Part shown: positions 1 to 59,181 of the stretch, piece after piece
Numbering within the stretch: position 1 is the first letter of the stretch
How the letters are laid out: each line of letters starts with the position of its first letter
Source of the DNA: Flavobacterium tyrosinilyticum
GTDB taxonomy: Bacteria > Bacteroidota > Bacteroidia > Flavobacteriales > Flavobacteriaceae
Reading direction: 5' to 3'
Assembly: GCF_023656565.1 (NCBI RefSeq)
Contig: NZ_JAMOKG010000003.1
Location: 558,001 to 622,000, forward strand
DNA: 64,000 nucleotides
The notes under the pieces: model-generated
The model's input: the letters and a program-made list of their open reading frames with translations, nothing else
What the model was told of the DNA's origin: nothing
Database searches by the model: none
Translations under genes and position numbers: made by a program

Positions 1-1
1 T

Positions 2-208
2 GGTATTCGCTATCCACAACGAATTATAGGTTTATATGAAGGGGGCGCCAGAGAAGGCTGCGGTGTATATATTCCTGCAGGATCGTGCAGAATGAAAAGT
101 ACAAGTTATGATAATGATTTTTGTTATGTATGTAAATATGCAATCATAGAAAAGATAGACCCAACATTGCTGGAAGCTTTGTATCGAACTTTTTACCCAA
201 GACCTTAA
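2..208 (+). CDS. C-terminal end of an M64-like (IgA peptidase family) metallopeptidase, 5' end outside window
   Basis: Only the last 68 codons are present, in frame 2, ending at TAA 206-208. The peptide contains GLYEGGAREGCGVYIPAGSC, then FCYVCKYAIIEKIDP. This pattern (glycine-rich EGG segment, a Cys-Arg-Met, then FCxVCxxAI and a DPT) is what I know from the C-terminal end of peptidase family M64 domains. The zinc site lies upstream of the window, so activity cannot be judged. Only 12 bases separate the stop from the next ATG, so it is probably the first visible gene of the operon that continues through 14607. The alternative is a cysteine-bearing hypothetical protein. Confidence 0.6.
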   Translation, partial: GIRYPQRIIGLYEGGAREGCGVYIPAGSCRMKSTSYDNDFCYVCKYAIIEKIDPTLLEALYRTFYPRP

Positions 209-220
209 AATAATTAAAAA

Positions 221-3200
221 ATGGCGGCTGATAAAAGTACATTTGAGTTATTAATTGAAGAGCTAGGACAGGCCATCAATGGTGTGCTCAATGATATAGG
301 CAATCCTGTAAAGTCCCCTCAAACCACTTTATATTTCCTTCGCAACTTGGGTTGGAATGTTCCTGAAAGTACAGACCTCTCTTCGTCTCCTCTTAAATTT
401 ATCAATAGCTTTTCTTCCATTAATCTTAATAATACTTCCGATTACAGCTCGCTTATCGGATCGCTAAAAAATGTAATAACCGATTTCGACTCCATCAAAG
501 ATAATCTTGGTCTTGGTGCAACATTATCTGATTTTGGCACAAAGTTTCCTAGACAGCTTCTTGATTATATGATCATGCGGCATATGCAGTATGAACATCC
601 AAAAATTTCTGCTTTCTTCCTCTTCATTGGCATTTTTGACAATAGTTACCAACCGGCTGCATTGCCTGCCCATATTGCCTACAAACAATATCGCATTGAA
701 TGGGAAAGATTAATCATTTTTCTACAAGAACCACATCGCATACCAGAAATTGTGTACGGATGGGGTACACCAACTTATGACGGTAAATTATTAATAGAAA
801 ATATTGAACATTTACTGAATGCGCTAGAAATCCAAACTGGCGTTTATATGCCTACTGGAGATATTACTTCCCAATATAGTTTAAGTGGTGATGCCTTGTA
901 TGTTCCATTTTTTGATCTTGATACGGTTAAAGCTGGACTGGAAGTGTATCCTATTGCAACAGACAGTACTCCAAATAACGCGGGGCTGGCTGTATCGCCA
1001 TTTTTTATCGGAAGTGCTGAAACAGAAATTGTAATCAATGAAAATTTTTCCTTACTTATTAAGGGCGGACTTAAAATAGATAAAACAACAGGAGTAGAAA
1101 TAAGACCCAAAACGGCCATAACTTTATTTGATCTTACCGCTGCCTCTGCTATTGATGGTACTCTTGAAATAACTTTTCGTATATCGGGCCCAGAGCATTT
1201 GGTACAATTGGGTGCGCCAGAATCTACCAGACTCGAAATAGGAGCTATAGAATTAACTGGCAAAGCTCAGGTAAACCAGCAAGGCAATGATTTTACTATT
1301 GAAATTGCCGTTAAAGATTCACGTGTTGTAATAGATTTAGGTGGCGGAGATGGATTTATTTCTTCTGTACTTCCTTTGGATCCTATAGAAGTTCCTCTCG
1401 ATCTTACTGTAGGATACTCCACCAAAAATGGCATTTACTTTAAAGGAAGTGCAGGAATACAGATTCAATTGCCCATCCATATTTCATTGGGACCTATTGA
1501 AATTAGCGGTATAACCATCGAAATAAAAATAGAAGACCGAAAAATACCTATATCTGTAAGTGCTGATTTTAAAGGCGAATTGGGTCCGCTTACAGTGGTT
1601 GTAGAAAATATTGGCGTGAGCACCAATTTAAGTTTCCCCGAAAATAACCGTGGAAATATGGGGCCATTTGATCTAGGCTTTGGCTTTAAGCCACCAAATG
1701 GACTGGGGCTTTCTGTAAATGCCGGAGCAGTCATTGGCGGCGGTTACTTATTTTTTGATTTTGAAAAAGAAGAATACGCAGGTGTACTAGAACTAACAAT
1801 TGCAGGATTTATTTCTGCCAAAGCAATAGGATTGATTACGACAAAGATGCCAGATGGCAGTAAAGGTTTTTCAATGCTTATTATTATCACGGCAGAATTC
1901 TTTCCTCCATTTCAACTAGGTTATGGTTTCACATTGAATGCTGTTGGCGGATTATTGGGATTGAATAGAACCATGCTGTTGGATCCATTAAGAAATGCCG
2001 TGCGCACTGGAGCAGTAAACAGTATCATGTTTCCACAAAATGTAATTGCCAACGCGCCAAGAATCATTAGCGACCTAAAATCGATATTCCCTCCCTATGA
2101 AGAAAGATTTCTAATTGGCCCGATGGGAAAAATTGGCTGGGGAACGCCAACTTTGATTACACTTTCACTAGGTATTATTATTGAAATACCTGGAAATATT
2201 GCTATTCTGGGAGTACTTAAAGTAGCATTGCCAACAGAGCAAACACCACTGGTTCAAATACAGGTTCTATTTGTGGGAACTATCGATTTTGACAAGAAAA
2301 TGTTAACCTTCGACGCGAGTCTCTATGAATCATTTATTCTTACTATGACTCTGGAAGGCGATATGGCAGTGCGTTTGAAATGGGGTGATCAACCTGATTT
2401 TTTATTGAGTGTTGGAGGTTTTCATCCGTCATACACACCTCCCCCGCTTTCATTGCCTACTATGAAACGCCTTTCTCTCACTATCCTAAATACAGACATT
2501 GCCTTGATACGGGTAGAATGTTATCAGGCAGTAACATCCAACACGGTACAGTTTGGTGCTAAGGCAGAGATAAAATTTGATCTTAGAGCATGTGTCATAG
2601 AAGGAAATATTGGTTTTGATGCCTTGTTCCAGTTCAGTCCATTCTATTTTATTATTCAGGTATCGGCCAGCTTCAAACTTAGTGCCGCTGGTATTGATAT
2701 ATTAAGTGTAAGGGTAAGAATGTCTCTTGAAGGACCAACTCCATGGAGAGCGAAAGGTACTGGTAGTGTTTCTATCTTGTTCTTCGAAATATCTGCCGAC
2801 TTTGATGTTACTTGGGGAGAAGAAAAAAACACAGCCATACCAGAAGTGGCTATCTATCAAAAATTCCTCGACGATTTACAGAAAAGAGAATACTGGAGTA
2901 CTATACTCTCAAATAACAAAAATCTTTTAGTATCACTTCGAAAAATGGAAGAGTCGGCAACAGCGCCTCTTGTGTTACATCCTGCAGGATCACTGGTAGT
3001 ACAACAAAAAATACTGCCATTACAAGTAAAAATTGATAAAGTAGGAAGTCAAAAAGTGAATGATGTACAAAAAATCACGATTAAAAAAGCAACTAGTGAC
3101 GGTAACGAACTAAAAATCACAGAAGTGAACGACAATTTCGCCCGAGCACAATATCAAAACCTTACCGATTCAGAAAAACTGTCTAAGCCTTCTTTCGAAA

Positions 3201-3625
3201 AAATGCCAAACGGCGTTCAAATATCATTGAGTAATACCATTATCAAAAATGGAAAATTTGTACGAAAAAATGTCGCGTATGAAATTACCATTATCGATAA
3301 AGAGCCTGTAAAACCATTTAGAAAAGGAAGATTCTTTATGCAAATCGGCATCTTGTTCAATCATTTCCTAAAAGGAAACAGCGTGTCTAAGTCTACTTTA
3401 TCTAAATCTCATTTGAATAAAATGCAGCCTTTTGCAGAAAAAATTTCTATAAAAGAAGAAGGTTATACCGTAGCCTTAAAATCAAACAATAAGGCACATA
3501 CTGCGCACGCAACATTTGAAAGTGAGATCATGGCGCAGACCTATATGGAGGAGCAAATTGCCAGACAGCCAGGACTGAAAAAGGAGCTTCAAATTATTCC
3601 TAATTATGAATTACAATCATCATGA
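221..3625 (+). CDS. Giant beta-rich protein, probably DUF6603-type, function unknown
   Basis: 1134 aa with no signal peptide. Residues 1-190 look alpha-helical. From about 200 to 880 the sequence alternates hydrophobic and polar residues with many glycines, as in a large beta-sheet or beta-solenoid domain. Landmarks are a glycine-rich stretch near 500-585 with FFPPFQLGYG and GGLLGLNRT, and GGFHPSYTPPP near residue 730. The C-terminal part has a QQKILPLQVKI segment near 926 and ends in a small domain closing with LQIIPNYEL. I associate this layout with DUF6603 from memory only. The stop overlaps the next start (ATGA), so translation is probably coupled. The function is unknown; the lack of export signals suggests a cytoplasmic or non-classically exported scaffold. 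Confidence 0.75.
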   Translation: MAADKSTFELLIEELGQAINGVLNDIGNPVKSPQTTLYFLRNLGWNVPESTDLSSSPLKFINSFSSINLNNTSDYSSLIGSLKNVITDFDSIKDNLGLGATLSDFGTKFPRQLLDYMIMRHMQYEHPKISAFFLFIGIFDNSYQPAALPAHIAYKQYRIEWERLIIFLQEPHRIPEIVYGWGTPTYDGKLLIENIEHLLNALEIQTGVYMPTGDITSQYSLSGDALYVPFFDLDTVKAGLEVYPIATDSTPNNAGLAVSPFFIGSAETEIVINENFSLLIKGGLKIDKTTGVEIRPKTAITLFDLTAASAIDGTLEITFRISGPEHLVQLGAPESTRLEIGAIELTGKAQVNQQGNDFTIEIAVKDSRVVIDLGGGDGFISSVLPLDPIEVPLDLTVGYSTKNGIYFKGSAGIQIQLPIHISLGPIEISGITIEIKIEDRKIPISVSADFKGELGPLTVVVENIGVSTNLSFPENNRGNMGPFDLGFGFKPPNGLGLSVNAGAVIGGGYLFFDFEKEEYAGVLELTIAGFISAKAIGLITTKMPDGSKGFSMLIIITAEFFPPFQLGYGFTLNAVGGLLGLNRTMLLDPLRNAVRTGAVNSIMFPQNVIANAPRIISDLKSIFPPYEERFLIGPMGKIGWGTPTLITLSLGIIIEIPGNIAILGVLKVALPTEQTPLVQIQVLFVGTIDFDKKMLTFDASLYESFILTMTLEGDMAVRLKWGDQPDFLLSVGGFHPSYTPPPLSLPTMKRLSLTILNTDIALIRVECYQAVTSNTVQFGAKAEIKFDLRACVIEGNIGFDALFQFSPFYFIIQVSASFKLSAAGIDILSVRVRMSLEGPTPWRAKGTGSVSILFFEISADFDVTWGEEKNTAIPEVAIYQKFLDDLQKREYWSTILSNNKNLLVSLRKMEESATAPLVLHPAGSLVVQQKILPLQVKIDKVGSQKVNDVQKITIKKATSDGNELKITEVNDNFARAQYQNLTDSEKLSKPSFEKMPNGVQISLSNTIIKNGKFVRKNVAYEITIIDKEPVKPFRKGRFFMQIGILFNHFLKGNSVSKSTLSKSHLNKMQPFAEKISIKEEGYTVALKSNNKAHTAHATFESEIMAQTYMEEQIARQPGLKKELQIIPNYELQSS

Positions 3626-6600
3626 GCGAAACATTAGCAAACTACTCTTTTTTACCATGGTTACGCCAAGGATTATCTAACAACATCATTAAATTCGACA
3701 ATGATAGTTCTGTGCTTTTGCGTGCCTCTATAAAAATAGCACTCGAAATCGAAGCAATAAAAGTAGATGGAAAAACGGAAGACAACAGAATATTACCAGA
3801 TAAAGAAATTCAACTTTATGGCCCTGGTGACATTGTAGGTATAGATAGCAAGGCAATTGTAAAAACAGAGCCCAGAAACTGGATCACAAATTTTGAACCT
3901 AATTATTTACCTTATATCGAATTTTACGAAGAAGATTTTCCATGGCGATACACGCCCGCAAGACCTTCCGAAAACAAGCTTCGTCCTTGGCTCACACTCA
4001 TCGTACTAAAAGAAGATGAATTTGAAGAGGGCCAGAATATGAAAGATAAACCGCTGCCTTTCTTTAAATTGAAAAGCGGAAAAAACACTGCCGATATTTT
4101 CCCAAAATCATCAGAACTTTGGGCATGGGCGCACGTACACATCAATACCGATCTTTCTAATGGAGCAAGCGCAAACACCGCAAATCCAGACAATATTACT
4201 AATGCTATTAATAATTTAATTAATAAAAATCCTGATAATGCCTACTCTAGAATCATTTGTCCAAGAAAACTGGAACCCAATATTGGATACTATGCTTTTC
4301 TTATTCCCACTTTTGAAAGCGGAAGACTTGCTGGATTAGACTACGAAATTCCTTCCACATTAGCGGCAACTAAATGTGCATGGGATGACAGCAATGTTTC
4401 CGAATTTCCGTATTATCATCGCTGGCATTTCAAAACAGGTAATATGGGTGACTTCGAATATTTAGTAAACCTATTACAGCCAAAGCTTGCTGATAAAAGT
4501 ATTGGAGTAAGAGATATAGATGTGATACATCCTGGTTCTAATCTTCCTCCGATAAATGACCCTGAACTCCACAATATTCTAAAACTCGGCGGTGCCTTAA
4601 GAGTCCCTTTTGATTCGATGAAGCCTGCCGATAAAGCAATTGCAAAAAAATATGATGAATGGGATGAACATCCCTATCCGCATCAATTTACCAAGGCTAT
4701 GGCCGCAAGAATAAATCTTTCTGATGATTATAGTATTGCATCAAAAAATATGGCGCAGGTAAATTTTGATGCTGGAATTACTTCAGAAAATGACCCTACA
4801 AAAGGTGATCCAGATCCGGTAATCACTTCTCCATTATATGGCACATGGCACGCACTACAGCAGCGTTTGTTGAAAACCAGCGATGGTACAGACCTTCCCA
4901 ACAATAAAAACTGGATACATGAGCTAAACCTTGATCCGAGATTTAGAACCGCTGCAGGAATAGGAACTAAAGTTATTCAGAAAAATCAGGAAGAATATAT
5001 GCAAGCGGCTTGGGAGCAAGTAGGTCGTGTTACAGAGATTAACAACAAGTTCAGATTTGCACAACTCGCATTGCAAGTATCATTAAAATATTATAACAAA
5101 CATCTGACGCCGCTGATTACCGAAAAAGCGTTTATGTTTACGTCACCCGTTCAAAAAAGGATTATCTACAAAAACCTTACTGTCTATCAAACCATATCAG
5201 AAAGTACGATACCAGCTGTAATGACTTCGGGCAAATTTCGTAGCATTACAAGAACAAGAGGTGGCTTCATGAAGAAGTTAAACTTTTCTGATACTGTTAC
5301 GCCTTATAATTTAATAGAGAGAATAAACAACGGCGAAGTTGTTGTTGCACCGCCAAAAACAGATCCCGAAGGCGCAATAAACCTCACCGACCTGGCCGAG
5401 GAGATGGCCCCAACAGATATTCCGCAATTGATTGTAGAGCTCTTAAAGAAATACAAGTGGTTCAAATTTTTGCCTCTGTTATTATTGATATTGCTTTTCT
5501 TATTCATGCTACTATTCGCCGCATCGTTAAGCGGATCTGTGGTATTGGGACTTATAGGAGCTGCATTGGTATGGTTCTATCTAAAATTAAAAAAATGGAA
5601 CAACGATGTTATGGCAGCCGCTGCTGTAACACAAGACAGTCAAACGCCTGCTGCAGTAGACCAATATCCTGTTAGTCCTGGCTTTGTTATAACATTACCC
5701 GGAAGCACTTATACACCAACAACTGGCAGTACAGACAGTGAAGAAGCAATTAAATTTAAAACTGCTCTAAAAGATGCTTTTACATTGATAAGTATTAAGT
5801 ATCCAGATCCTATACGCAAACCTGTGGATTTAAAAGACTTAACTACTTCAATGGTAAACTTACTAAACCCCGTTATCACTATTCCTAAGAGAACCCATCA
5901 CAGTATTACTATCCCTGCTCGTATAGCCACCAATATGGTCGAACAATTTGCACCAGTAATGGTATATCCGGAGATTGATATCCCGATGTATAAGCCATTG
6001 AGCGAAATGTCTTCAGAATTGTTTCTGCCAAATATCAACCTTATTGAACAGAATAGCATTACACTTTTAGAAAACAACCAAAAGTTTATTGAATCTTATA
6101 TGGTCGGCATTAATCATGAAATGTCAAGAGAATTGTTGTGGAGAGAATATCCAACCGATCAAAGAGGTTCCTATTTTAGACAATTCTGGGATGTACAAAG
6201 TTTCTTGCCTCCACAGCCTGAATCGGAAGACTCAGCACAAGAATTAAGAGAAAAATTAAGAGATATTCCTAAAATACACGAATGGTCAAAAATTAATAGT
6301 GCAAAAGTTTTTCCTTCACAAGCAGACTCTCCATTGAAGAATGAATTGGGTCAGCATAACCAAAGGGCGCTATTAAGCGGAAAAACACAATTGGTGTTGG
6401 TGATAAGAGGAGAATTACTGAAAAAATACCCAACAGCAGTAATATATGCACATAAAGCAGATTGGGGACCTGATCAAACTATTATACCAGACCAGCCCGC
6501 TCCAAAACCCAGAAGTGTAAGTGAAGAAAGGATTTTTGCAAAACTTTCTGCAGAGGACGAAAAAAATCCACCACAATCTATTATCAAAACGCCCTTGTTT

Positions 6601-7029
6601 GAAGCAAAAGTAGAACCAGATATTTATTTTTTCGGATTCGATCTTGATGACGAGGAAGCAAGAGGTAAATTAAATCCAACTTCGATAACGGATGATCCCG
6701 GCTGGTTTTTTGTCATAAAAGAAAGACCAGGTGAACTGCGCTTTGGACTAGACATTGAAAAAGCGAAGAATGCGGCAGGAGTGGAAAAAATTGTAAACTG
6801 GAACAACCTTTCTTGGAAAGATATTCAAACGACTGACGGAAGTTGTATTGAAATGAATAAAACAGTGACCTTAAAAACACCCAATGCTGATGATCAGGAA
6901 AATATAGAACACCCAGATGATGTGCAAGCAAGATGGTCCCCTGACACCAATGCCGCAGAACTTGCCTATATCCTTTATCAGGTTCCAGTACTTGTTGGAG
7001 TACATGCTAGCCGAATGTTACCCAAATAA
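3622..7029 (+). CDS. Giant uncharacterised protein with a central membrane segment
   Basis: 1135 aa, no signal peptide. Conserved-looking landmarks are SFLPWLRQGL at the N-terminus, GPGDIVGID near residue 67, YIEFYEEDFPWRYTPA near 98 followed by LRPWLTLIVL, and a C-terminal ending in VPVLVGVHASRMLPK. I recall this arrangement from unannotated proteins of Bacteroidota and actinobacteria, with no known role. Residues about 616-657 form a strongly hydrophobic stretch (LPLLLLILLFLFMLLFAASL, then a second run) ending in KLKKW, so it probably crosses the membrane once or twice. The large N- and C-terminal halves would then lie on the same side if it forms a hairpin. Its start overlaps the stop of the preceding gene by 4 bases; the next gene starts 8 bases after its stop. 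Confidence 0.75.
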   Translation: MSETLANYSFLPWLRQGLSNNIIKFDNDSSVLLRASIKIALEIEAIKVDGKTEDNRILPDKEIQLYGPGDIVGIDSKAIVKTEPRNWITNFEPNYLPYIEFYEEDFPWRYTPARPSENKLRPWLTLIVLKEDEFEEGQNMKDKPLPFFKLKSGKNTADIFPKSSELWAWAHVHINTDLSNGASANTANPDNITNAINNLINKNPDNAYSRIICPRKLEPNIGYYAFLIPTFESGRLAGLDYEIPSTLAATKCAWDDSNVSEFPYYHRWHFKTGNMGDFEYLVNLLQPKLADKSIGVRDIDVIHPGSNLPPINDPELHNILKLGGALRVPFDSMKPADKAIAKKYDEWDEHPYPHQFTKAMAARINLSDDYSIASKNMAQVNFDAGITSENDPTKGDPDPVITSPLYGTWHALQQRLLKTSDGTDLPNNKNWIHELNLDPRFRTAAGIGTKVIQKNQEEYMQAAWEQVGRVTEINNKFRFAQLALQVSLKYYNKHLTPLITEKAFMFTSPVQKRIIYKNLTVYQTISESTIPAVMTSGKFRSITRTRGGFMKKLNFSDTVTPYNLIERINNGEVVVAPPKTDPEGAINLTDLAEEMAPTDIPQLIVELLKKYKWFKFLPLLLLILLFLFMLLFAASLSGSVVLGLIGAALVWFYLKLKKWNNDVMAAAAVTQDSQTPAAVDQYPVSPGFVITLPGSTYTPTTGSTDSEEAIKFKTALKDAFTLISIKYPDPIRKPVDLKDLTTSMVNLLNPVITIPKRTHHSITIPARIATNMVEQFAPVMVYPEIDIPMYKPLSEMSSELFLPNINLIEQNSITLLENNQKFIESYMVGINHEMSRELLWREYPTDQRGSYFRQFWDVQSFLPPQPESEDSAQELREKLRDIPKIHEWSKINSAKVFPSQADSPLKNELGQHNQRALLSGKTQLVLVIRGELLKKYPTAVIYAHKADWGPDQTIIPDQPAPKPRSVSEERIFAKLSAEDEKNPPQSIIKTPLFEAKVEPDIYFFGFDLDDEEARGKLNPTSITDDPGWFFVIKERPGELRFGLDIEKAKNAAGVEKIVNWNNLSWKDIQTTDGSCIEMNKTVTLKTPNADDQENIEHPDDVQARWSPDTNAAELAYILYQVPVLVGVHASRMLPK

Positions 7030-7037
7030 CTTTAATT

Positions 7038-10000
7038 ATGAGTGATCTAAAAAACATACAGGACGCACAAAACAGTAACCGAAAACAATCGGCTGCGGTG
7101 AACATTGAAATTCAAAAGGCGCAAGCTGCATTGGAGAAACTAAATGCTGACGAAAAGGAAGAATTAAAAAGTCTTAATGAACAAGAACGCGAATCAAAGA
7201 AGTTATTCAATGAAAAACAAAGAAACCAAATAATAAAAGATATTGGAGAACTAAGAGATTCAAAAAAATCGATTAAGGCCAACTACGAAAAGATAACTAA
7301 TGCTTTTTTAGCACAACTTGATCCTATAAAAAAGATTACAGAACTAAACGACAACATTCCTATTCTGATGTTTCCATTACGTTTAGAAACAAGATTCAAA
7401 TCAACTGGCAATCAAAAACAGCTTTGGTTACGAGTTTATCCCGATGATTGTAATATCAATAGTAAAGAAGAACTGTTATCTGAATCTGAATTGAAAAATG
7501 CAAAAGCCTTTTGGATAGAAATGTGGAAAGCAGGCGGCATAAAAGCAGATGAAAAAGCGGCTTGGAGAAGTTTAGTAAATAGCCATGGTACGGGACGTTC
7601 TGCTTATATCATAAAAGAGTATAAACCTGCCAATACTTATACTGTAAGGCCTAGCGCGGCATATAAAATATTTGTAGTAAACTCTTCCCTTTCCTTAAGC
7701 TCGGCAGAAAAAGATGCCGCAACAAAATATTGGTCAGCTATTTGGTTTGCCAAAGGCGACGCTGTAAAAATTGATAAGGCAAAAGAAATTTTAACCGCGA
7801 CAACAAACTCTGCTACAGCAACATTAATACAAGAAAACTATATTCCGGAAAATATTACTGATGAAATACCTGAAGAACAAGACAGCAGTAAAATCATAAT
7901 TTCTGAGATTGATCTTCCTGATTATACCGCTAAAAATGGTTCTTGGACACAGTCGGCTAAAACAATGGGACTGCCCAATAAGTTTGTGGTAACCACCTTT
8001 GATGGAAATGTAAAAAAAACAATCCTGTTTAATAACCCTGTCAAAGATCATTTGGCTGTAAGTGTGGATCCTTCTTTAACAGGCGATGACCAGCTTAAGA
8101 AAGATGATGATAAAAACCTTATTCTCAATGATGAATTGAGCTGGATGGTAGATTTTGAAAAAGCAGAACAGGCTGGAATGGCAACAAAAATAGACCTTAC
8201 ACCTGAGGAAGCGCAAACCGGTTTTAAAAAATTATTTGTTACAGGCATAAGATTCACTTCTGATGAAGCTGATGGCCAAGAACAACTGCAAACATTATTT
8301 ACGGATCATTTTTACAGCAAAAATGGTCTTGAACTAATAAAACAGGGAGCATCTACAAATAATACTGAAGATGCACCTGCTGCATACACTTGGACTGACA
8401 ATGGCGATGATAGTTTTGATTCGTTTTTTAGCAATTCTGAAGATTTTGTTTCGGCAGATACACCAGATAAAAAATCAGATGGCGAAAAACTGGCAGATTG
8501 CCTTGGAATAGATCCTGCAATATTAAAAAATGTGAAAAATGCCAATGGTAAAGATCAGTTAGAAGCTTATGCTATGAATACGGCACTTTTTCCAGCAACG
8601 TTGGGCTATTTTATGGATGAAATGATGGATCCGTTATTCACCGACAGGGATATCGAAGCGACCAAAGCATTCTTCTCTGGCTTCGTTTCAGGACGAGGGC
8701 CTATACCGGCCATACGAATCGGAAAACAACCTTACGGAATTCTGCCAATATCGGTCTATTCCAAATTAAATTTCTTAGGAAGAGACAATAACACAGACTT
8801 ATCCAACAACATTAGAACACCATTTCTGCCAAGACTTCACAGATGGCTGATGAAAATGGATAGCAATTGGGATGAATTATTAATAGATGTCGCACATATA
8901 GGTAAAACAACAGATGATGCCCACAAGCTATTATTAAAAATTCTAGCATTGAATGCCAATTCAGTTGAGTTTCATCAGCGCTATGCACAGTCGAAAAATC
9001 AAATGCACAATCAGCTAAATCTGCAGCATCATTTTCTTTTAACCCCAAAATTTGAAAAGAAAATGCAGGAAAAAGCAAAGCAAATTTTAAATGAGCTTGG
9101 AATTGACACCGTTCCTATACTTGAAAAATTCTTTCTGAGCCGTCCTAATCTATTGAGCGGACCATTTATTGATGACGTACCCGATTCAGAAACCTCTGCT
9201 ATCCGTCCCTATAGTGCAAACGGATTGAATTATATCGAATGGCTGGTTGCAACAGCAGGCGATACCGTACGCAGAGATGATTTTGGTGGTCAAGAAGCCC
9301 CGACAGCACTACTCTATTTACTTTTAAAACACGCGCTTACCCAATCACAATCCAATGCGGCGGCAAATGTGTTGGCAACAAACAATCTCATTGCCAGCAG
9401 AAAAGTATTTAAAGATCCTGATTTTTTACATGTAGAAGCCAAAGGTATCGGAAAAAGTAAATACGAACATTTGTTCAGTACCTATCCTACTATCACTGGA
9501 GATGCTACAACGAAATTAATAGATTATATCCAGAAACCCAATATTTTACACAATCTGGCAGAGACGGAACAATTGAAGGAAACAATTGATGCTCTGAAAA
9601 TACTGGAGAAAACACCAACCGCAAGATTAGAACGTTTATTAACCGAACATCTAGACTGCTGCAGCTATCGAATTGATGCATGGAAAACAGGTTTGGTACA
9701 ATACAAACTTACGGAACAACGTTTAAAAAACAGCAAAAATACTCAGCCTTCAAAAGGCATCTATCTTGGCGCTTATGGCTGGTTGCTGGATGTCGAGCCA
9801 CAAAATAAATTACTTACCAACGAAACGCTTACACCAGAACTGAATGAAATATTCAATAAGGAGAACATTGCGCCACTTCAATCAGACAGTAAAAATCTTG
9901 GTTTCATACATGCACCTTCCTTAGACCAAGCCGCCACCGCTGCTATTTTGCGCAATGCTTATGATAGCAACAAAGATGCCGGCAGTGGCAATCCTTTTGC

Positions 10001-12803
10001 TATAAACCTCACATCAGACAGAGTGCGTGTAGCCGCTAATTTTTTAGAAGGCATGCGTAATGGTCAGCCTCTTGCGGCATTACTTGGCTACCAATTTGAG
10101 AGAGGTTTGCATGACAAATACAATCTTGGCAAAGGTGAAGTAGATAAATTTATTTTGCCTTTGAGAAAAGTCTTTCCGTTGGTGGCAGATAATCTTGTAG
10201 ATACTAAATCAAAACCAGAAGAAAATGAAGAAATGATAGCTGCAAACAATGTACTCGATGGATTAAAGTTCATTAATTATGTCAGAGAAGCCTCTGTTAA
10301 GGTATATCCTTTCGCTTTGGCGTCAACTTTTAATTTACCCACAGCCACTTCAGATCAAGCTAAGGCAATAAAAGAAGAACTCGACTACATTATCGATATC
10401 AACGATGCGATATCCGATCTTGTAATGGCAGAACAAGTCTATCAGGTAGTGCAGGGAAATTTTGAAAGAGCATCCGGAAACGCAAATGCATTTAGCAAAG
10501 GAGATTATCCCCCAGATATTGACATTATCAACACGCCTAGAAGCGGTGTAACACTTACACATCGAATGGCTATTCAGTTCGATAGTGATGCAACCGCAAT
10601 TTCTGGTGCAATAGCCCGAGCAAAAGCTGAACCAGCTGTTAACAAATGGCTTATCGAAAATTTACCGGCGCCAGAAAACGTGATTTGTAATATTGTCTAC
10701 AGTAACCCTCTTCAGTCCGATATTCCAATCACCGTTTCTCAAAAAGAACTAGGACTGGAAGCAATTGATCTTTTATACGTATTAAACACGGATACTGAAC
10801 AATCAATGACCGAATTGGATGATAGAATATTGAATTTTGTACGTTATACCAAATCAAATCATCCCAAAACAACCATCAAAATAAATTATACCGAAGCTGT
10901 AAATACAACGAATAAAGCGAATGTTTCTTTCTTTGAATTGGCTGCCTTAATAAAAAGCTTACGCAAAATATTAATCGGATCTAAAGCGATAACTCCTACT
11001 CAGGTGATGTTATCAAAAGAATCTGCAACACCAACTAATCTCGATGATGTGAAATTGAAGACAACGGTAGAAAATTTAATAGATATTGATTTTGATAGTG
11101 TCAAAACAAGTTTAGAAAATATTAGCACCAACACACATTCGTTTACCAGCATTTCGGCACAGCTTTATAATGATATTGGAACACTCATAACTGACCCATC
11201 CATAAAAGACAACATCATTATACAATTAAAATCTGATCTCAAAAACTATCTTGCTGACCCAAATCCTGCTAACAAAGCTACAATCCTGACTGCATTTGAA
11301 AACAGTATTAATTCTATAGGCGTACCTTCAACCATTAACACTTTAAAAACAGCCTATGATAACTACCTAGAGCTGTATGCAAATGATTTTGTCCATTTTG
11401 ACACCTTGGTAAAAGATATTTCTACTCAGTATTTAAAAACAGCGCTTTTTGATAATGTACAAACAGGAATTGGCTTTATTCATAGCGGCGTAACGGTCAT
11501 TTATGAAAATGTATTTACCAAACTAGATATTTTAATAGAAAGATGGGGTAAAAAATTAATTGAAGCAGAACTCATAATGTCGGCTTATACTACAACAGCC
11601 GATCCTGACGAAAAAATAGAATTACTTCAAAAAGCAGAACAGCAAATTTCATCTGTTTCTACTTTTCCAGTTTTACCATTGGCTTCTTATAAAACCGCAT
11701 TTGATACTAAGAAAGCCGATTTTATTAGTTTATTGAACAACATTAAAGCACTAAAAACAAATAACAAAACCACAATTATTGATTTTTTATCCGATGTAAA
11801 TACAACCATTAAAGAGGTAAGCCTATTCGATACCGTCGCATTTGACACCGTAACCGAAAGTAATAATACCAACACAGAGCTATTGCAATTGGCTTTATTG
11901 AAAGAAGATATTGTAGTATCGCTAAACAACCTTCAAAAATATATTGAGAAAAAAATAAACAATAGTAAAGCCTTAATAGCCGAGGCTGATGCAACAGTTG
12001 TCAATGCCGATAAAATTACTACCCTTATAAAAGCTGCAAAAATAATACTGGGAGATGAAGCTTTACTATTGCCACGCTTTACGCTGAATAGTAATTCTGC
12101 CGCTGAATTTAATAACGCTCTTACCGATAAAGACCAATTATTAACTTTTATAAAAGCGACAGAAAACAGCCTATTTCCAATTGAAGACTGGCTAGGAGGA
12201 GTTGCCAGAGTGAGAGATAAAGCGCACCATTGGGAAAACATTGTTTTTCTTACCGATGCATTCAAGTCAACAGTCGAAGTGAACCTTACTGCCCTACAAT
12301 TTCCTTATCAATCCAATGATCGCTGGCTGGCCGTAAAATTTAGAGAGGATACCGCCACAGAAAAAGATGAAAATGGCAAATATATCTTTAACATCAAAAA
12401 TGATAAGTTGCTCTATACTGCACATTTTGCAAAAGGTTATGATAATACCAAACCACAATGCGGTATTGTAATAGATGAATGGACCGAAGTAATTCCCGCA
12501 AATGAAGAAACAACCGGAATCGCTTTTCATTATGATCAACCGAATAGCGAACCTCCACAAACAATGTTTTTGGTAACACCTCCGCAGATAACCGGAAATT
12601 GGAAATGGAACGATATCATTGAATCTATGGAGGAAACTCTAGAGATGGCTAAAAAACGTGCTGTAGAACCTGCCCAAATAGAGGGTTCAAGATATGGACA
12701 GTTTCTTCCAGCAACCATAATGGCTGTAAGCATGCATTGGATTACCGCTTCTGTCAATCTGGCTCAAAACAATAATATTTATAAAAAAATAAACAATGGT
12801 TAA
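7038..12803 (+). CDS. Very large uncharacterised protein of the four-gene module (1921 aa)
   Basis: 1921 aa, no signal peptide or membrane segment. Residues about 20-95 are charged and heptad-like (KAQAALEKLNADEKEELKSL), so probably coiled coil. A conserved-looking block follows: PLRLETRF near 112 and LWLRVYPDDC near 129. Other landmarks are GRGPIPAIRIGKQPYGILPI near 553 and NGQPLAALLGYQFERGLHD near 1008. Residues about 1330-1640 are rich in alternating Leu/Asn/Lys and look helical. I recall the YPDD and GQPLAALLGY motifs from hypothetical proteins in several phyla but know no function. The 3' end overlaps the next gene by 8 bases, consistent with coupled translation and with the four proteins forming one complex (inference). 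Confidence 0.75.
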   Translation: MSDLKNIQDAQNSNRKQSAAVNIEIQKAQAALEKLNADEKEELKSLNEQERESKKLFNEKQRNQIIKDIGELRDSKKSIKANYEKITNAFLAQLDPIKKITELNDNIPILMFPLRLETRFKSTGNQKQLWLRVYPDDCNINSKEELLSESELKNAKAFWIEMWKAGGIKADEKAAWRSLVNSHGTGRSAYIIKEYKPANTYTVRPSAAYKIFVVNSSLSLSSAEKDAATKYWSAIWFAKGDAVKIDKAKEILTATTNSATATLIQENYIPENITDEIPEEQDSSKIIISEIDLPDYTAKNGSWTQSAKTMGLPNKFVVTTFDGNVKKTILFNNPVKDHLAVSVDPSLTGDDQLKKDDDKNLILNDELSWMVDFEKAEQAGMATKIDLTPEEAQTGFKKLFVTGIRFTSDEADGQEQLQTLFTDHFYSKNGLELIKQGASTNNTEDAPAAYTWTDNGDDSFDSFFSNSEDFVSADTPDKKSDGEKLADCLGIDPAILKNVKNANGKDQLEAYAMNTALFPATLGYFMDEMMDPLFTDRDIEATKAFFSGFVSGRGPIPAIRIGKQPYGILPISVYSKLNFLGRDNNTDLSNNIRTPFLPRLHRWLMKMDSNWDELLIDVAHIGKTTDDAHKLLLKILALNANSVEFHQRYAQSKNQMHNQLNLQHHFLLTPKFEKKMQEKAKQILNELGIDTVPILEKFFLSRPNLLSGPFIDDVPDSETSAIRPYSANGLNYIEWLVATAGDTVRRDDFGGQEAPTALLYLLLKHALTQSQSNAAANVLATNNLIASRKVFKDPDFLHVEAKGIGKSKYEHLFSTYPTITGDATTKLIDYIQKPNILHNLAETEQLKETIDALKILEKTPTARLERLLTEHLDCCSYRIDAWKTGLVQYKLTEQRLKNSKNTQPSKGIYLGAYGWLLDVEPQNKLLTNETLTPELNEIFNKENIAPLQSDSKNLGFIHAPSLDQAATAAILRNAYDSNKDAGSGNPFAINLTSDRVRVAANFLEGMRNGQPLAALLGYQFERGLHDKYNLGKGEVDKFILPLRKVFPLVADNLVDTKSKPEENEEMIAANNVLDGLKFINYVREASVKVYPFALASTFNLPTATSDQAKAIKEELDYIIDINDAISDLVMAEQVYQVVQGNFERASGNANAFSKGDYPPDIDIINTPRSGVTLTHRMAIQFDSDATAISGAIARAKAEPAVNKWLIENLPAPENVICNIVYSNPLQSDIPITVSQKELGLEAIDLLYVLNTDTEQSMTELDDRILNFVRYTKSNHPKTTIKINYTEAVNTTNKANVSFFELAALIKSLRKILIGSKAITPTQVMLSKESATPTNLDDVKLKTTVENLIDIDFDSVKTSLENISTNTHSFTSISAQLYNDIGTLITDPSIKDNIIIQLKSDLKNYLADPNPANKATILTAFENSINSIGVPSTINTLKTAYDNYLELYANDFVHFDTLVKDISTQYLKTALFDNVQTGIGFIHSGVTVIYENVFTKLDILIERWGKKLIEAELIMSAYTTTADPDEKIELLQKAEQQISSVSTFPVLPLASYKTAFDTKKADFISLLNNIKALKTNNKTTIIDFLSDVNTTIKEVSLFDTVAFDTVTESNNTNTELLQLALLKEDIVVSLNNLQKYIEKKINNSKALIAEADATVVNADKITTLIKAAKIILGDEALLLPRFTLNSNSAAEFNNALTDKDQLLTFIKATENSLFPIEDWLGGVARVRDKAHHWENIVFLTDAFKSTVEVNLTALQFPYQSNDRWLAVKFREDTATEKDENGKYIFNIKNDKLLYTAHFAKGYDNTKPQCGIVIDEWTEVIPANEETTGIAFHYDQPNSEPPQTMFLVTPPQITGNWKWNDIIESMEETLEMAKKRAVEPAQIEGSRYGQFLPATIMAVSMHWITASVNLAQNNNIYKKINNG

Positions 12804-14607
12804 TCCTATTAAAAATATCAAAGAAGCACTTGAGCTAAAGCTATTCCCGACCGTAATGATGTGGAATAGACTTGAAGGAAGACCACGCGCCCATAATTTT
12901 GACCGTGCACTAAAAGCCGAAGTAAGAGATGCATTATGGATGCTTACCAAACAATGGCAAATGGGAGAATTTAAAGCCGATGATGCAGGTTCTCCTGTAT
13001 TTGCAAAAATTCATATTACCAGTTCGCATTTACAAAAGTACAAAGCGGCTGCAAATGCCATTCAAAATTTTGAAAACAATGTCCCTCTCGAAGCAAAAAC
13101 AGAACAGAAGAAGATTGCTTTTAAAAGAGAAGAAAAAAAAATAAGCATTGATATTAGGCTGCAAATGGGCAGATACTGGTTACAATTATTGAAAAAATAT
13201 GCTCTTAATTACCGAGATATTTATATAGAAAACTATGGTTTTACCATGCCTCCAAATAATCGTGATAATGCCGCTATTTATGCTCATAAAAATGTGTGGC
13301 AACAATATGCAGCTATAAGCGGAAGAGCAATGGATGGTTATGCGCTATATGAAAAGATTATTTTGGGCACATCCGCATCTGACGGTATTGTCTTAAGCGA
13401 TCCTGGACATCAAACAGTACTTGACAATGATCTCACAAATGACTTTAAAGACTGGTATGCTAAAATATATCTTCAGCCGAATGATGAAAAGAATACTGCT
13501 TGGCTGCCTAACAAATTAGAATACCAATTTGAGTGTAGCGCAACAGCTGAAAAAACAGAAAAAAAATTGTCTGCTGCTGAATATTATCAAGGACATCCGG
13601 ATTGGTATGTATTTGATATTGAAGAACAAAAAACGAATGACACAGGAGAGCCACTCAACAAATTCACCGATACTTTTATACCTTCTCACATTGCATTTGA
13701 AGGCATGCCGGATCGAAGATGGTGGCAATTTGAAGATTCTAAAACCGACCTCGGAGATATAAAACCCTCAACAACGGAACTTTCAAAACTATTATTAATG
13801 GAATTCGGATTGGTTTTTGCTAACGACTGGTTCCTAGTTCCGTACACACTTCCAATTGGTTCTTTGGCCAATATTGAAGGCCTCACGGTGAAAAACAACT
13901 TTGGAGAAACCATCTGGATTAAACCAACTGAGGAAATAGGCAAAGAGAATATGAGTTGGAGTATGTATAAATTACATTCAGAAAAACAAAATAACACACT
14001 ATTTCTCTCCCCAACTGCAATGAAAGTACATGAAAGTGATCCTATCGAAGAAATTGTATTGATAAGGGATGAAATATCAAATATGGTCTGGGGAATAGAA
14101 ACCGTTATTCCTTCTCCAGCAGGTATTGGCGAAAAAGGAAGCGAAGCGGCATTGCGTGTGCGTCAATTTCATGAAAACATCGTAAACAAAAATACCCCAA
14201 TTGCAACATTACCTTATTCAGCCAAAATTAGTTATCAGGCTATGAGTAATGTTCCTGAAAACTGGATCCCATTTGTGCCGGTACATAAAAAAAATGATAA
14301 TAGGGAAATCCAATTACAGCGTGCCTCTTTATTAAGAATTATAGAAAAAGATCAGGAAACGCCAAAAAAAATCAAGCCGCAATCCAGTATTCTGCGCGAA
14401 GGTTTGGATGAAATTCCAAAACCATTACCCTATTATATTCATGAGGAGGAAATACCAAGAGCAGGTGTAAAAGTATCACAATCCTTTCAGCGCACGCGTT
14501 GGCTGAACGGAGAAGTATTTGTATGGCTTGGCATGAAAAAGAAAATCGGAAGAGGCGAAGGCAGCAGTAATCTGGCTTTTGATCAAATCAAAGATGTCAA
14601 GGATTAA
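12796..14607 (+). CDS. Uncharacterised 603-aa protein, last gene of the four-gene module
   Basis: No export signal. The N-terminus has MMWNRLEGRPR and, at residues 46-59, ALWMLTKQWQMGEF followed by DDAGSPV. The C-terminus has RTRWLNGEVFVWLG and GRGEGSSNLAFD near 577-596. These blocks recur, as far as I remember, in unannotated proteins found next to relatives of the three upstream giants, so this is a module partner rather than an unrelated gene. Function is not known. It overlaps the 1921-aa gene by 8 bases and closes the plus-strand operon; the next gene is on the opposite strand. Confidence 0.75.
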   Translation: MVNPIKNIKEALELKLFPTVMMWNRLEGRPRAHNFDRALKAEVRDALWMLTKQWQMGEFKADDAGSPVFAKIHITSSHLQKYKAAANAIQNFENNVPLEAKTEQKKIAFKREEKKISIDIRLQMGRYWLQLLKKYALNYRDIYIENYGFTMPPNNRDNAAIYAHKNVWQQYAAISGRAMDGYALYEKIILGTSASDGIVLSDPGHQTVLDNDLTNDFKDWYAKIYLQPNDEKNTAWLPNKLEYQFECSATAEKTEKKLSAAEYYQGHPDWYVFDIEEQKTNDTGEPLNKFTDTFIPSHIAFEGMPDRRWWQFEDSKTDLGDIKPSTTELSKLLLMEFGLVFANDWFLVPYTLPIGSLANIEGLTVKNNFGETIWIKPTEEIGKENMSWSMYKLHSEKQNNTLFLSPTAMKVHESDPIEEIVLIRDEISNMVWGIETVIPSPAGIGEKGSEAALRVRQFHENIVNKNTPIATLPYSAKISYQAMSNVPENWIPFVPVHKKNDNREIQLQRASLLRIIEKDQETPKKIKPQSSILREGLDEIPKPLPYYIHEEEIPRAGVKVSQSFQRTRWLNGEVFVWLGMKKKIGRGEGSSNLAFDQIKDVKD

Positions 14608-14660
14608 TTGAGTGATCACCGTTTTGAAGCTGCCTCAGTTTTTTACCATAAAAACGTTAT

Positions 14661-14715
14661 GGCAGATTAGCATACGATTTAGAAAAAGAAAATTTGCCGT
14701 ACCGCTAAATCTGCC
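14661..14715. terminator. Possible bidirectional terminator between convergent genes
   Basis: Inverted arms GGCAGATTAGC (14661-14671) and GCTAAATCTGCC (14704-14715) differ by one inserted base and enclose about 32 bases. T-rich stretches follow on both outer sides. It lies between the end of the four-gene operon and the convergent GH8 gene. The loop is long for a classical terminator, so this is tentative. Confidence 0.35.
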
Positions 14716-14744
14716 GTAATCCTATTTTTAGATTTAAAAATTGA

Positions 14745-16046
14745 TTAACCTTTTGGAGCTATAATTTGGTAATTCCCACTCAGATGCATTAAACTGAAGA
14801 GATACATTAATCCATCATAATAGGGATCAAAATAACCATCTTCGTAAGGCTCTAGCTTGGCATTCCAAACCGCATGAACAAAATCTATACTGGCTTTGTC
14901 TTTATTTACTAATGATGCTGTAGCCGCCGTTCCCACTAAACCAATCGAATGTCTTAGTTTTTTAACCGGACCTGCCTGAAGAATAAACTCTGGTGTAGAA
15001 CCATCGAGATTGAACTGATCTTCATAAGTATCTAATCCTTTAGACCTTAAGAAATTTTGAAAACGCTTCGCATAGCCTTCCTGCCATTCTTTATCTTTTC
15101 CGTACCAAGTATAATCCATGGCAATGTTCATAGGAACGCGCCAAGAATCATAACGGAATCCAGGAGGCATCCAAGGTGTCGGATGCGGTTCTCCATTAAA
15201 TTCTGTATAATCTGAATTTAGCCCCGTCACAGGATGACAGGCTTTATGCAAAAAGTTACGCGAAACATCGGCACATTCTTTATAAAACTGCTCGTGTCCG
15301 TCTTTGGCATACAAGGCCCATATTTCATAAAAGGCAGGAACATGATAAGAAGGATCTGTCCACTTATAGCCTCCTCCTTCTGGCGCAAAAGAAATTTGCT
15401 TATGTTCTGTATTAATAATATTATGCACATTACCCGTTCCGTCTTTTTTCCACATAGCATCTAGTATTCTCCTTGCTTCTTTGTAGTAGTTTATTCCTGT
15501 ATCATTGCCCCATTTATTAGAAGCGAAAAGCAGACTCGTTATATAATACAATTCTCCGTCTGAAGCAGAACCTAGAGAATTTTGTTTTTTAGTCTCTGGG
15601 TTTACGCTCCAAGCAAAGTAACCTTCTCTTGGTCCATCTTGATGCTGCATGTATTTTACCGACCATCTCCATAGACGATCAAAAACATCTTTTTTATTGA
15701 GCTGAACAGCAACCATCATTCCGTATGACATCCCTTCTGTACGAGCATCTTTATTTTTGATATCAGAAACGTATCCTAAAGCATCTCCTTCTTCAAAATA
15801 AACTTTATCTGGTCCTTCAAAAACATCATAATAAGCTTTAGCCAATTTCTTGTCGATATCAATCTGGCTATAACCTGCTTCTTTAAAAAGATTACGGTAT
15901 TGAGGCCTTTTTAATTCCGATTTATCCGCTTTCTTTTTATTTTGACTAATAACTAAAAACGGAACCATCACTGCAAAAATCAATAGTAGAAGTCGGGTTC
16001 TAATCAGGTATTTATTTGTAAAATCTTTAGCTATAACCATGTTCAT
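14745..16046 (-). CDS. GH8 reducing-end xylose-releasing exo-oligoxylanase (Rex-like)
   Basis: 433 aa. Residues 18-35 form a hydrophobic export signal or anchor. The rest matches glycoside hydrolase family 8 of the Rex type: the general-acid region ARTEGMSYGMM places the catalytic Glu at 104, and GFRYDSWRVPMN places the candidate base Asp at 300. Family members release xylose from the reducing end of xylo-oligosaccharides by inversion. It is the last gene of the SusC/SusD operon, behind a GH43 gene, and fits periplasmic trimming of xylan fragments imported by SusCD. The alternative is an endo-acting GH8 (xylanase or chitosanase), which the xylan gene context makes less likely. The start could also be the internal Met at residue 3. 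Confidence 0.85.
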   Translation of the reverse strand: MNMVIAKDFTNKYLIRTRLLLLIFAVMVPFLVISQNKKKADKSELKRPQYRNLFKEAGYSQIDIDKKLAKAYYDVFEGPDKVYFEEGDALGYVSDIKNKDARTEGMSYGMMVAVQLNKKDVFDRLWRWSVKYMQHQDGPREGYFAWSVNPETKKQNSLGSASDGELYYITSLLFASNKWGNDTGINYYKEARRILDAMWKKDGTGNVHNIINTEHKQISFAPEGGGYKWTDPSYHVPAFYEIWALYAKDGHEQFYKECADVSRNFLHKACHPVTGLNSDYTEFNGEPHPTPWMPPGFRYDSWRVPMNIAMDYTWYGKDKEWQEGYAKRFQNFLRSKGLDTYEDQFNLDGSTPEFILQAGPVKKLRHSIGLVGTAATASLVNKDKASIDFVHAVWNAKLEPYEDGYFDPYYDGLMYLFSLMHLSGNYQIIAPKG

Positions 16047-16128
16047 ATTTTTATTATTTTACTAGTTAATTCAAAAAAAATGTATGCTTTGAAATCTTTC
16101 GTTTCATTAGAAAAATTAAATCGGCTTT

Positions 16129-17103: not shown

Positions 17104-17152
17104 TTAATTCAAAATGCCATTTCATTTTTCTTCGATAGTTTTTCTCTAAACA

Positions 17153-17181
17153 ATAAACAGCGCAGTAAATGCGCTGTTTAT
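17153..17181 (-). terminator. Hairpin between susD and the downstream enzyme genes
   Basis: A perfect 12-bp stem, ATAAACAGCGCA with TGCGCTGTTTAT, encloses a GTAAA loop. On the minus strand it lies between susD and the GH43 gene and is followed only by a broken T-rich stretch (TTGTTTAG). It may be a partial terminator or processing hairpin that makes the enzyme genes less expressed than susCD. Confidence 0.6.
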
Positions 17182-17220
17182 AAAAACTAACTTAACTTAA
17201 ACTAACCAAAATTTAAAGCC

Positions 17221-18714: not shown

Positions 18715-18726
18715 CGTCTTTAAATA

Positions 18727-59178: not shown

Positions 59179-59181
59179 TTT

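What the first reader, a model, noticed from the sequence alone, without database searches (positions are those of the whole stretch)
2..14607. Four-giant-gene operon of unknown function behind an M64-like peptidase
Seen: five plus-strand frames with gaps of 12 and 8 bases and overlaps of 4 and 8 bases, coding 1134, 1135, 1921 and 603 aa, none with a signal peptide. Known from memory: the motifs FEPNYLPYIEF, YPDDC, GQPLAALLGY and LWMLTKQWQ recur in uncharacterised proteins of several phyla and seem to travel together. Inference: they form one large complex, perhaps membrane-tethered through the second protein, acting with the protease. This is a strong candidate for an undescribed system.
Basis: partly seen in the sequence, partly recalled or inferred. 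Interest (0 to 1): 0.78.

Follow-up and report, generated by a model that had tools for sequence, protein, structure and literature searches.

The report
Shared protein chassis carrying swappable enzymes
Bacteria and salt-loving archaea share an unstudied set of four very large proteins that is nearly always made next to one enzyme, and that enzyme has been swapped for an unrelated one many times in evolution, which looks like a common machine that handles interchangeable enzymes.

Summary
In detail: M64 peptidase, then four large genes (1134, 1135, 1921, 603 aa). Gene 1 is Pfam DUF6603; genes 2-4 (O2-O4) match no known family. The four are a conserved chassis: of the 80 O2 loci kept (eleven bacterial phyla plus Aminicenantes), 70 keep DUF6603-O2-O3-O4 in order, nine are cut by contig ends, one is permuted; haloarchaeal plasmids carry it too. 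The M64 peptidase sits in a payload slot that elsewhere holds trypsin-like or subtilisin-like proteases, an RGC-motif family, PhoD, galactose oxidase-like protein or tyrosinase, almost all without an evident signal peptide; a quick O2 tree needs at least 33 changes of payload class. The unit exchanged is the enzyme gene plus the first ~480 residues of the DUF6603 protein: two loci 91% identical in O2 and 95% in DUF6603's constant part share 20% in its N-terminal part and carry tyrosinase versus trypsin-like protease. Trypsin-like and subtilisin-like payloads share a new ~117-aa C-terminal domain. Best reading: an undescribed modular payload-chassis complex whose payload docks on DUF6603's N-terminus. 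Delivery outside the cell or into a target cell is plausible, not shown. The link to contractile injection systems is weak.

The parts
1..208 (+). 3' end of the payload gene: M64-like zinc peptidase (full gene in own genome G000:C3:556940-558208 = L002:12940-14208, 422 aa, HELGH)
221..3625 (+). Chassis gene 1, DUF6603 protein, 1134 aa
   Evidence: Pfam PF20248 E=6.4e-136, residues 419-984
221..1680 (+). Variable N-terminal half of the DUF6603 protein (about residues 1-485), exchanged together with the payload; boundary approximate, adaptor role inferred
   Evidence: break at residue 398-491 in 16 chosen pairs, median 482
1681..3625 (+). Constant C-terminal part of the DUF6603 protein; the predicted beta-meander (residues ~225-876) runs into it, followed by a less conserved tail
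3622..7029 (+). Chassis gene 2 (O2), 1135 aa, no family, confident model without a credible PDB match
5455..5622 (+). Helical hairpin of O2 (residues 612-667) with the strongly hydrophobic segment (616-634); such a segment is present in 50 of 70 homologues
7038..12803 (+). Chassis gene 3 (O3), 1921 aa, no family
12796..14607 (+). Chassis gene 4 (O4), 603 aa, no family

Best explanation
This is one copy of a modular payload-chassis system. Four constant proteins (the DUF6603 C-terminal part, O2, O3, O4) form a common assembly. One enzyme gene, directly before the DUF6603 gene, supplies the payload; here it is an M64 zinc peptidase. The payload has no evident signal peptide and is bound by the variable N-terminal ~480 residues of the DUF6603 protein, so that enzyme and cognate adaptor are exchanged as one cassette with the break inside the DUF6603 gene. 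The assembled particle then deploys the enzyme, most likely outside the producing cell or into another cell, with the O2 hairpin as a membrane-inserting element in most versions. Shown by sequence: conserved chassis, payload exchange, co-exchange of the N-terminal half of DUF6603, a shared C-terminal domain on two unrelated protease classes. Inferred: physical complex, docking, membrane insertion, delivery, and the target. My own split: payload-chassis modularity about 0.9; docking on the DUF6603 N-terminus about 0.75; action outside the producer about 0.5.
For: Chassis order kept in 70 of the 80 loci kept of 153 found, 9 cut by contig ends, 1 permuted. Payload-like ORF within 60 nt before DUF6603 in 62 of 72 assessable loci; 68 of 72 after rescue of 4 hidden by the ORF caller and 2 with longer gaps. 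In both permuted loci seen, payload and DUF6603 stay adjacent: O2-O3-O4-PhoD-DUF6603 in L120, O2-O3-O4-M64-DUF6603 in L019/L126. Pfams among 65 upstream genes: S8 11, M64 6, PhoD 4, trypsin 4, galactose oxidase-like 3, tyrosinase 1. 33 minimal changes of 13 payload classes on a quick O2 tree, 56 labelled rows, least possible 12. N-terminal DUF6603 tracks payload: nearest neighbour has the same payload class in 49 of 56 versus 23 of 56 for the C-terminal part, shuffled mean ~7 of 60; 5 pairs with like payloads have N-termini 85% identical on average, 1247 pairs with unlike payloads 20%; C-termini 93% and 57%. L030/L039: O2 91%, C-term 95%, N-term 20%, tyrosinase (by eye) versus trypsin-like. 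Shared C-terminal domain in 25 of 65 upstream proteins: 18 trypsin-like, 6 subtilisin-like, 1 truncated; in 42 carrier genomes 17 of 18 copies lie at this locus.
Against: No physical evidence for a complex. No secretion, lysis or injection gene was seen to recur beside the operon: no Pfam family in more than 2 of 103 flanking proteins scanned. 4 of 72 loci have no recognisable payload (L069, L071, L083, L084). The shared C-terminal domain was not found in 40 of 65 upstream proteins, including the window's own peptidase, so docking would need several solutions. The five M64 loci in the DUF6603 alignment have N-termini no more alike (0.14) than M64 is to another class (0.14), and the window's own nearest N-terminus belongs to a different payload class. 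C-terminal nearest neighbours also agree above chance (23 of 56), as shared descent would give. DUF6603 model is only moderately confident (pLDDT 78, pTM 0.51). O3 and O4 were not folded.
Confidence: 0.6

Rival explanations
1. An intracellular conflict (defence or self-killing) system with variable effectors, in which the chassis senses invasion and releases or activates the enzyme inside the cell.
For: Patchy distribution (4 of 198 in the phylum draw); payload classes overlap with effectors of the conflict systems of PMC7159879 (passages): trypsin-like and caspase-like peptidases, subtilisin in one system, alpha/beta hydrolase, calcineurin-superfamily phosphoesterase (that PhoD belongs to that superfamily is recalled); the small shared C-terminal domain resembles in role their effector-associated domains; no evident signal peptides.
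Against: No PADLOC match for the five proteins; no NTPase or sensor Pfam in the five proteins; payloads include tyrosinase and galactose oxidase-like enzymes, and 'tyrosinase' does not occur in the main text of PMC7159879.
Confidence: 0.22
2. An accessory effector module of extracellular contractile injection systems (eCIS).
For: Adjacent to an eCIS gene cluster in three Chitinophaga genomes; an apparent eCIS cluster on another contig of the own genome; sheath family at E<=0.001 in 29 of 42 carriers versus 45 of 198 phylum genomes, over the cut-off 22 of 42 versus 32 of 198.
Against: 13 of 42 carriers have no sheath hit; the comparison is not matched for phylum or genome size; in the window's own genus 5 of 9 genomes without the operon also have a sheath hit; eCIS-like proteins near the operon in only 4 of 83 loci scanned, within flanks of a few kb, and one of the 4 (L060) is a lone sheath gene with a signal-peptide-like start.
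Confidence: 0.12
3. A scaffold or shell that holds an enzyme in the cytoplasm, a kind of enzyme compartment, without any delivery.
For: Usually one payload per chassis, no evident signal peptides, tightly packed genes; enzymes of many unrelated functions.
Against: Payloads are largely degradative enzymes that would be a risk inside the cell (inference); most O2 versions carry a strongly hydrophobic segment (50 of 70); no shell family seen in the Pfam results or in the fold rows listed, which does not exclude one.
Confidence: 0.12

Closest known systems
Pfam DUF6603 (PF20248)
   Same: Gene 1 is a clear member over residues 419-984
   Different: Pfam gives no function; the other chassis genes have no family; the variable N-terminal half lies almost wholly outside the Pfam domain
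Peptidase M64 (IgA peptidase family)
   Same: The window's payload matches with an intact HELGH
   Different: Known M64 enzymes are secreted (recalled); this one has no evident signal peptide and is one of several interchangeable payloads
VMAP/EAD-type conflict systems (PMC7159879, passages read)
   Same: Variable effectors incl. trypsin-like and caspase-like peptidases, coupled to constant components by small shared domains
   Different: Those are NTPase based; no NTPase, vWA or MoxR Pfam in the five proteins here
Extracellular contractile injection systems (PMC8213781, passages read)
   Same: Gene cluster with variable enzyme cargo; adjacent in one Chitinophaga group
   Different: No sheath, tube or baseplate family among the five; an eCIS neighbour was seen in few loci
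Tc toxin complexes (recalled)
   Same: Large constant proteins plus an exchangeable enzyme part
   Different: No sequence match in Pfam; only weak coiled-coil fold rows for O2; O3 and O4 not folded
Second DUF6603 operon type (L111-L117, found here)
   Same: Variable upstream gene in 6 of 7 loci, DUF6603, then an O2-like gene (hhalign 93.4%, E=2.6e-7, 205 columns)
   Different: Its further genes, where present, show no detectable homology to O3 or O4; DUF6603 protein is 1292-3223 aa

Membership tests
Pfam DUF6603 | Profile match above the curated cut-off | tested here: met
   454 bits versus cut-off 27
Peptidase M64 | Profile match and HExxH zinc motif | tested here: met
   64.4 bits versus cut-off 26; HELGH
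Peptidase M64 | Peptidase activity (IgA or other substrate) | not testable with these tools
   needs an assay
eCIS | Sheath, tube, spike and baseplate genes in the cluster | tested here: not met
   No such Pfam in the five proteins; the only sheath hit of the own genome, below the cut-off, is on contig C5, not C3
eCIS | Genomic linkage to an eCIS across carriers | tested here: not met
   Cluster seen next door only in three Chitinophaga of 83 loci, flanks of a few kb; 13 of 42 carriers lack a sheath hit
VMAP/EAD conflict systems | NTPase/vWA/MoxR core components in the operon | tested here: not met
   No such Pfam in the five proteins
VMAP/EAD conflict systems | Known effector-associated domain on the effector | tested here: inconclusive
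   32 copies of the shared C-terminal domain have no credible Pfam match; folds were not compared
Known anti-phage defence systems | Match to a PADLOC model | tested here: not met
   five proteins, none at E 0.01 (2023 models)
Tc toxin complexes | TcA/TcB/TcC folds | tested here: inconclusive
   Tc rows only at Z 4.8-5.9, mostly on the O2 hairpin; O3 and O4 not folded
Outer membrane beta-barrels | Closed barrel exported by Sec and BAM | tested here: inconclusive
   Foldseek rows are mostly barrels with TMq 0.06-0.16; apoB-100 ranks first by VIA with rmsd 10; no evident signal peptide, and the family occurs in actinobacteria and archaea

The most novel reading that the evidence does not exclude
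A new class of protein delivery machine, unrelated to phage tails, Tc toxins or known secretion systems, shared by bacteria and archaea, whose interchangeable enzyme payload is loaded through a cassette-swapped adaptor half of the DUF6603 protein and carried across a membrane by O2; a second DUF6603 operon type would be its sister.
Probability: 0.4. Interest if true: 0.95.

Novelty: categorically new. Interest (0 to 1): 0.84.

Why it matters
If the payload-chassis reading holds, there is an undescribed modular enzyme-handling machine in eleven or more bacterial phyla and in haloarchaea, with natural experiments (recent payload swaps with a defined break point) that make it directly testable. 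It gives a first functional handle on DUF6603 and on three giant families without any annotation, and predicts that a new C-terminal domain addresses proteases to it.

Tried and rejected
Fixed protease partner: rejected, payload varies. Phage origin: no relative in IMG/VR by pattern scans with O4 or O2, only chance-level PHROG matches, one unverified faecal scaffold in the phage set, no credible match of O2 in the viral structure library. eCIS membership: followed up and found weak; the L060 sheath next to the operon turned out to be a lone gene with a signal-peptide-like start. Homology among O2, O3, O4: none by profile comparison. PDB relatives by sequence: none credible; the rows for DUF6603 are mostly designed helical bundles matched to its N-terminal helical part. 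Signal peptides were judged by a crude rule only. My first payload labels lumped trypsin-like and subtilisin-like proteases (24 changes) because both carry the shared C-terminal domain; relabelled. The clan-CD-like (caspase-like) reading of the RGC-motif payloads (clusters C1, C3, C13) rests on a motif seen by eye plus hhalign 86-91% between them, not on a known family; the labels tyrosinase for L030, glycoside hydrolase (L085) and alpha/beta hydrolase (L033) were given by eye; Pfam counts one tyrosinase among the 65 without naming the member. Papers: searches for DUF6603 and PF20248 gave 0 papers; other searches listed 0 papers or papers that, by their listing, do not describe this; all in the held open-licence PMC library only. 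I read passages of PMC8213781 and PMC7159879, no paper whole. Selection: the 80 loci are the best 80 of 153, found through O2 patterns, so chassis completeness is conditional on O2 and favours near relatives; some are near-duplicates. Rows dropped: near-duplicate loci were left out of the alignments; the L083 porin and the L071 protein with a DUF4954-type look were in the 65 upstream genes but are probably not payloads; 14 of 70 O2 rows had no payload label; L046, L063, L064 and L087 upstream genes were not in the 65; 103 of 245 flanking candidates (160-700 aa) were scanned. The O2 tree is a quick one, 18 of 67 inner branches poorly supported.

Full report
Observation. The four frames and the cut peptidase are in the sequence exactly as described. 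The whole peptidase lies at L002:12940-14208 in the own genome and matches Pfam M64 at E=1.3e-17 with HELGH intact. Gene 1 belongs to Pfam DUF6603. Genes 2-4, here O2, O3, O4, have no credible Pfam, NCBIfam or PHROG match; none of the 61 members of the O4 alignment has a Pfam match at E 0.01.

Conservation of the set. O2 occurs in 4 of 198 genomes drawn from the phylum and O4 in the same 4. O4 is present in 42 of 42 O2 carriers tested. DUF6603 is found in 11 of 198 (10 over the cut-off): 4 with this operon, 6 in a different operon type, 1 below the cut-off. A pattern scan of 84,980 species genomes gave 153 confirmed relatives of O2, of which the best 80 loci were kept. By tblastn 70 of 80 hold DUF6603-O2-O3-O4 in order on one strand; nine others end at a contig edge; L019 is permuted. 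By record title the 80 loci come from eleven named phyla plus Candidatus Aminicenantes: Bacteroidota 36, Pseudomonadota 17, Actinomycetota 7, Cyanobacteriota 5, Chloroflexota 5, the other seven groups 10 together. O2 relatives are also on 13 plasmid records, four of them haloarchaeal. The three archaeal loci read have an ORF, then DUF6603-O2-O3-O4 in the same order; in L122 O2 and O3 are split into several frames, and only L121's upstream ORF has a payload Pfam (PhoD). Junctions are tight: a 4-base overlap of DUF6603 and O2 in 39 of 75 loci.

The payload slot. In 62 of 72 loci with at least 700 bp upstream, a same-strand ORF of at least 180 aa ends within 60 nt of the DUF6603 start; 4 more were hidden by my ORF caller and 2 have gaps of 163 and 207 nt; L069, L071, L083 and L084 have no recognisable payload. 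Pfam on 65 upstream proteins: S8 11, M64 6, PhoD 4, trypsin 4, galactose oxidase-like 3, tyrosinase 1, many with none. Own profiles count 18 trypsin-like and 10 subtilisin-like proteins among the 65, with no overlap once the shared C-terminal domain is cut off. 63 of 65 were not flagged by a crude signal-peptide rule. On a quick O2 tree the 13 payload classes need at least 33 changes over 56 labelled rows (least possible 12, shuffled mean 39; 30 after merging the RGC-motif classes). 18 of 67 inner branches are poorly supported, and labels rest on clusters, Pfam and, in a few cases, the eye.

The exchange cassette. In L030 (tyrosinase) and L039 (trypsin-like), O2, O3 and O4 are 91, 89 and 89% identical, and continuous DNA similarity begins inside the DUF6603 gene (one further 377-base match lies farther upstream). 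The N-terminal 400 residues of DUF6603 are 20% identical, residues 480-880 95%. The same pattern appears in L065/L085, L032/L033, L034/L035, L042/L039, L022/L061 and L036/L061, while L024/L028, which share a payload, are 85-92% identical in the N-terminal windows. Over 1540 pairs N-terminal identity follows payload similarity (Spearman 0.47), C-terminal identity hardly (0.10; pairs are not independent). Nearest neighbours agree in payload class for 49 of 56 N-termini and 23 of 56 C-termini, shuffled mean about 7 of 60. The best single break lies at window residue 398-491, median 482, in 16 pairs that I chose for close O2 and unlike payloads. In both permuted loci the payload stays directly before DUF6603: L120 and L019, whose continuation L126 shows O4, an 863-aa M64 protein and a DUF6603 gene overlapping it by 4 bases. 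This is the strongest evidence that the N-terminal half is the payload's cognate partner.

A new address domain. Trypsin-like and subtilisin-like payloads share a C-terminal domain of about 117 residues around a conserved W-[HQ]-R-x-x-G-P stretch, also on second and third tandem payload genes. 25 of 65 upstream proteins have it: 18 trypsin-like, 6 subtilisin-like, 1 truncated. It has no credible Pfam or PDB match. In 42 carrier genomes 17 of 18 copies lie at the DUF6603 locus, by comparing places; in the phylum draw it is in 2 of 198, one a carrier. The two copies away from the locus (in G222 and G029) are again on trypsin-like proteins, by eye. The window's M64 peptidase lacks it.

Structures. 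The DUF6603 model (pLDDT 78, pTM 0.51) has an N-terminal helical region to about residue 220 and then a long beta-meander. Matches are generic: mostly outer membrane barrels by Foldseek with TMq 0.06-0.16, apolipoprotein B-100 by VIA (Z 17.5, rmsd 10.0, 287 residues). O2 is confident (pLDDT 84, pTM 0.67) with no PDB match below E 0.3 and none credible among viral models; the VIA rows reach Z 6.8 on the helical hairpin and Z 5.0 (CopC) on residues 76-274, below the level of note. A strongly hydrophobic segment is present in 50 of 70 O2 homologues, so a membrane role is likely for most versions but not universal. O3 and O4 were not folded.

Context. Flanking genes show nothing in common: no Pfam family in more than 2 of 103 proteins scanned, of 245 candidates. 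eCIS: a cluster lies next to the operon in three Chitinophaga genomes, an apparent one on another contig of the own genome; sheath hits at E<=0.001 in 29 of 42 carriers versus 45 of 198 phylum genomes, over the cut-off 22 of 42 versus 32 of 198. But 13 carriers have no hit, 5 of 9 other genomes of the window's genus have sheath hits without the operon, and the comparison is unmatched. I treat eCIS as at most an occasional companion.

Second operon type. Six genomes with DUF6603 but without O2/O4 gave seven loci (L111-L117): a variable upstream gene in 6 of 7, a DUF6603 protein of 1292-3223 aa, then a gene 2 (split in two frames in L114 and L117), with a large gene 3 in at least four (L111, L112, L114, L117) and a gene 4 in L112, L113 and, cut, L111 and L114. 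Gene 2 is a distant relative of O2 (hhalign 93.4%, E=2.6e-7, 205 columns); genes 3 and 4 show no relation to O3 or O4. Upstream genes there include DUF4135, a below-cut-off GIY-YIG and two metallo-beta-lactamase-fold proteins, two others without Pfam; one gene 4 has a Peptidase_S74 tail-fibre chaperone domain. So the payload-plus-DUF6603 logic may be wider than this operon.

Mechanism and rivals. I commit to a modular payload-chassis complex that deploys one enzyme. That the enzyme works outside the producer is inferred from its kind (proteases, PhoD, oxidases), the hydrophobic segment of O2 and the C-terminal lamin-tail domain on an archaeal O4, and is the weakest step. An intracellular conflict system in the manner of VMAP systems (PMC7159879, passages) is the main rival; its effector list overlaps, but its NTPase core is missing from the five proteins and PADLOC finds nothing in them.

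Novelty. DUF6603 and PF20248 give 0 papers in the held library, and no other search listed a paper describing such a system. That library lacks most subscription papers, so priority is not proven.

Noticed in passing
G000:C5 about 119,880-145,800 (L097:13881-19901, L098:1-19900): An apparent contractile injection (eCIS) cluster in the window's own genome, on another contig, followed by several proteins with DUF4157-like looks (by eye).
   Followed up: partly
L111-L117: A second DUF6603 operon type with variable upstream genes (DUF4135, weak GIY-YIG, metallo-beta-lactamase fold) and a distant O2 relative.
   Followed up: partly
L120:7065-19901 (Leptolyngbya PCC 7375): A second, permuted copy: O2-O3-O4-PhoD-DUF6603; the genome has three DUF6603 hits.
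   Followed up: partly
L121, L122, L125 (haloarchaeal plasmids): The operon in archaea; O4 of L121 carries a lamin tail domain, O3 of L125 a decapeptide repeat region; in L122 O2 and O3 are split into several frames.
   Followed up: partly
L060:988-2550 (-): A lone phage-sheath-like protein with a signal-peptide-like N-terminus beside the operon in Gelidibacter.
   Followed up: no
L057:4788-5174: A small gene (128 aa) consisting almost only of the shared C-terminal domain, directly before a trypsin-like payload.
   Followed up: no
L013:13126-19737 and L084:3371-9982: DUF6603 proteins of 2203 aa in Algoriphagus, without a recognisable separate payload; a payload may be fused into the N-terminus.
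   Followed up: no
L118:4291-6394 (G222:C12) and L119:7380-8792 (G029): Copies of the shared C-terminal domain away from any DUF6603 operon, on trypsin-like proteins by eye; in L118 the protein is split into two frames.
   Followed up: partly
window 14745-21735: Minus-strand genes after the operon look like a polysaccharide utilisation locus (glycoside hydrolase, SusD- and SusC-like; by eye).
   Followed up: no
window 53584-63999: Two giant minus-strand frames (1864 and about 1605 aa), not examined.
   Followed up: no
window 1-16000: G+C about 0.37-0.38 over the operon against 0.30-0.37 in the rest of the window, compatible with horizontal gain.
   Followed up: no
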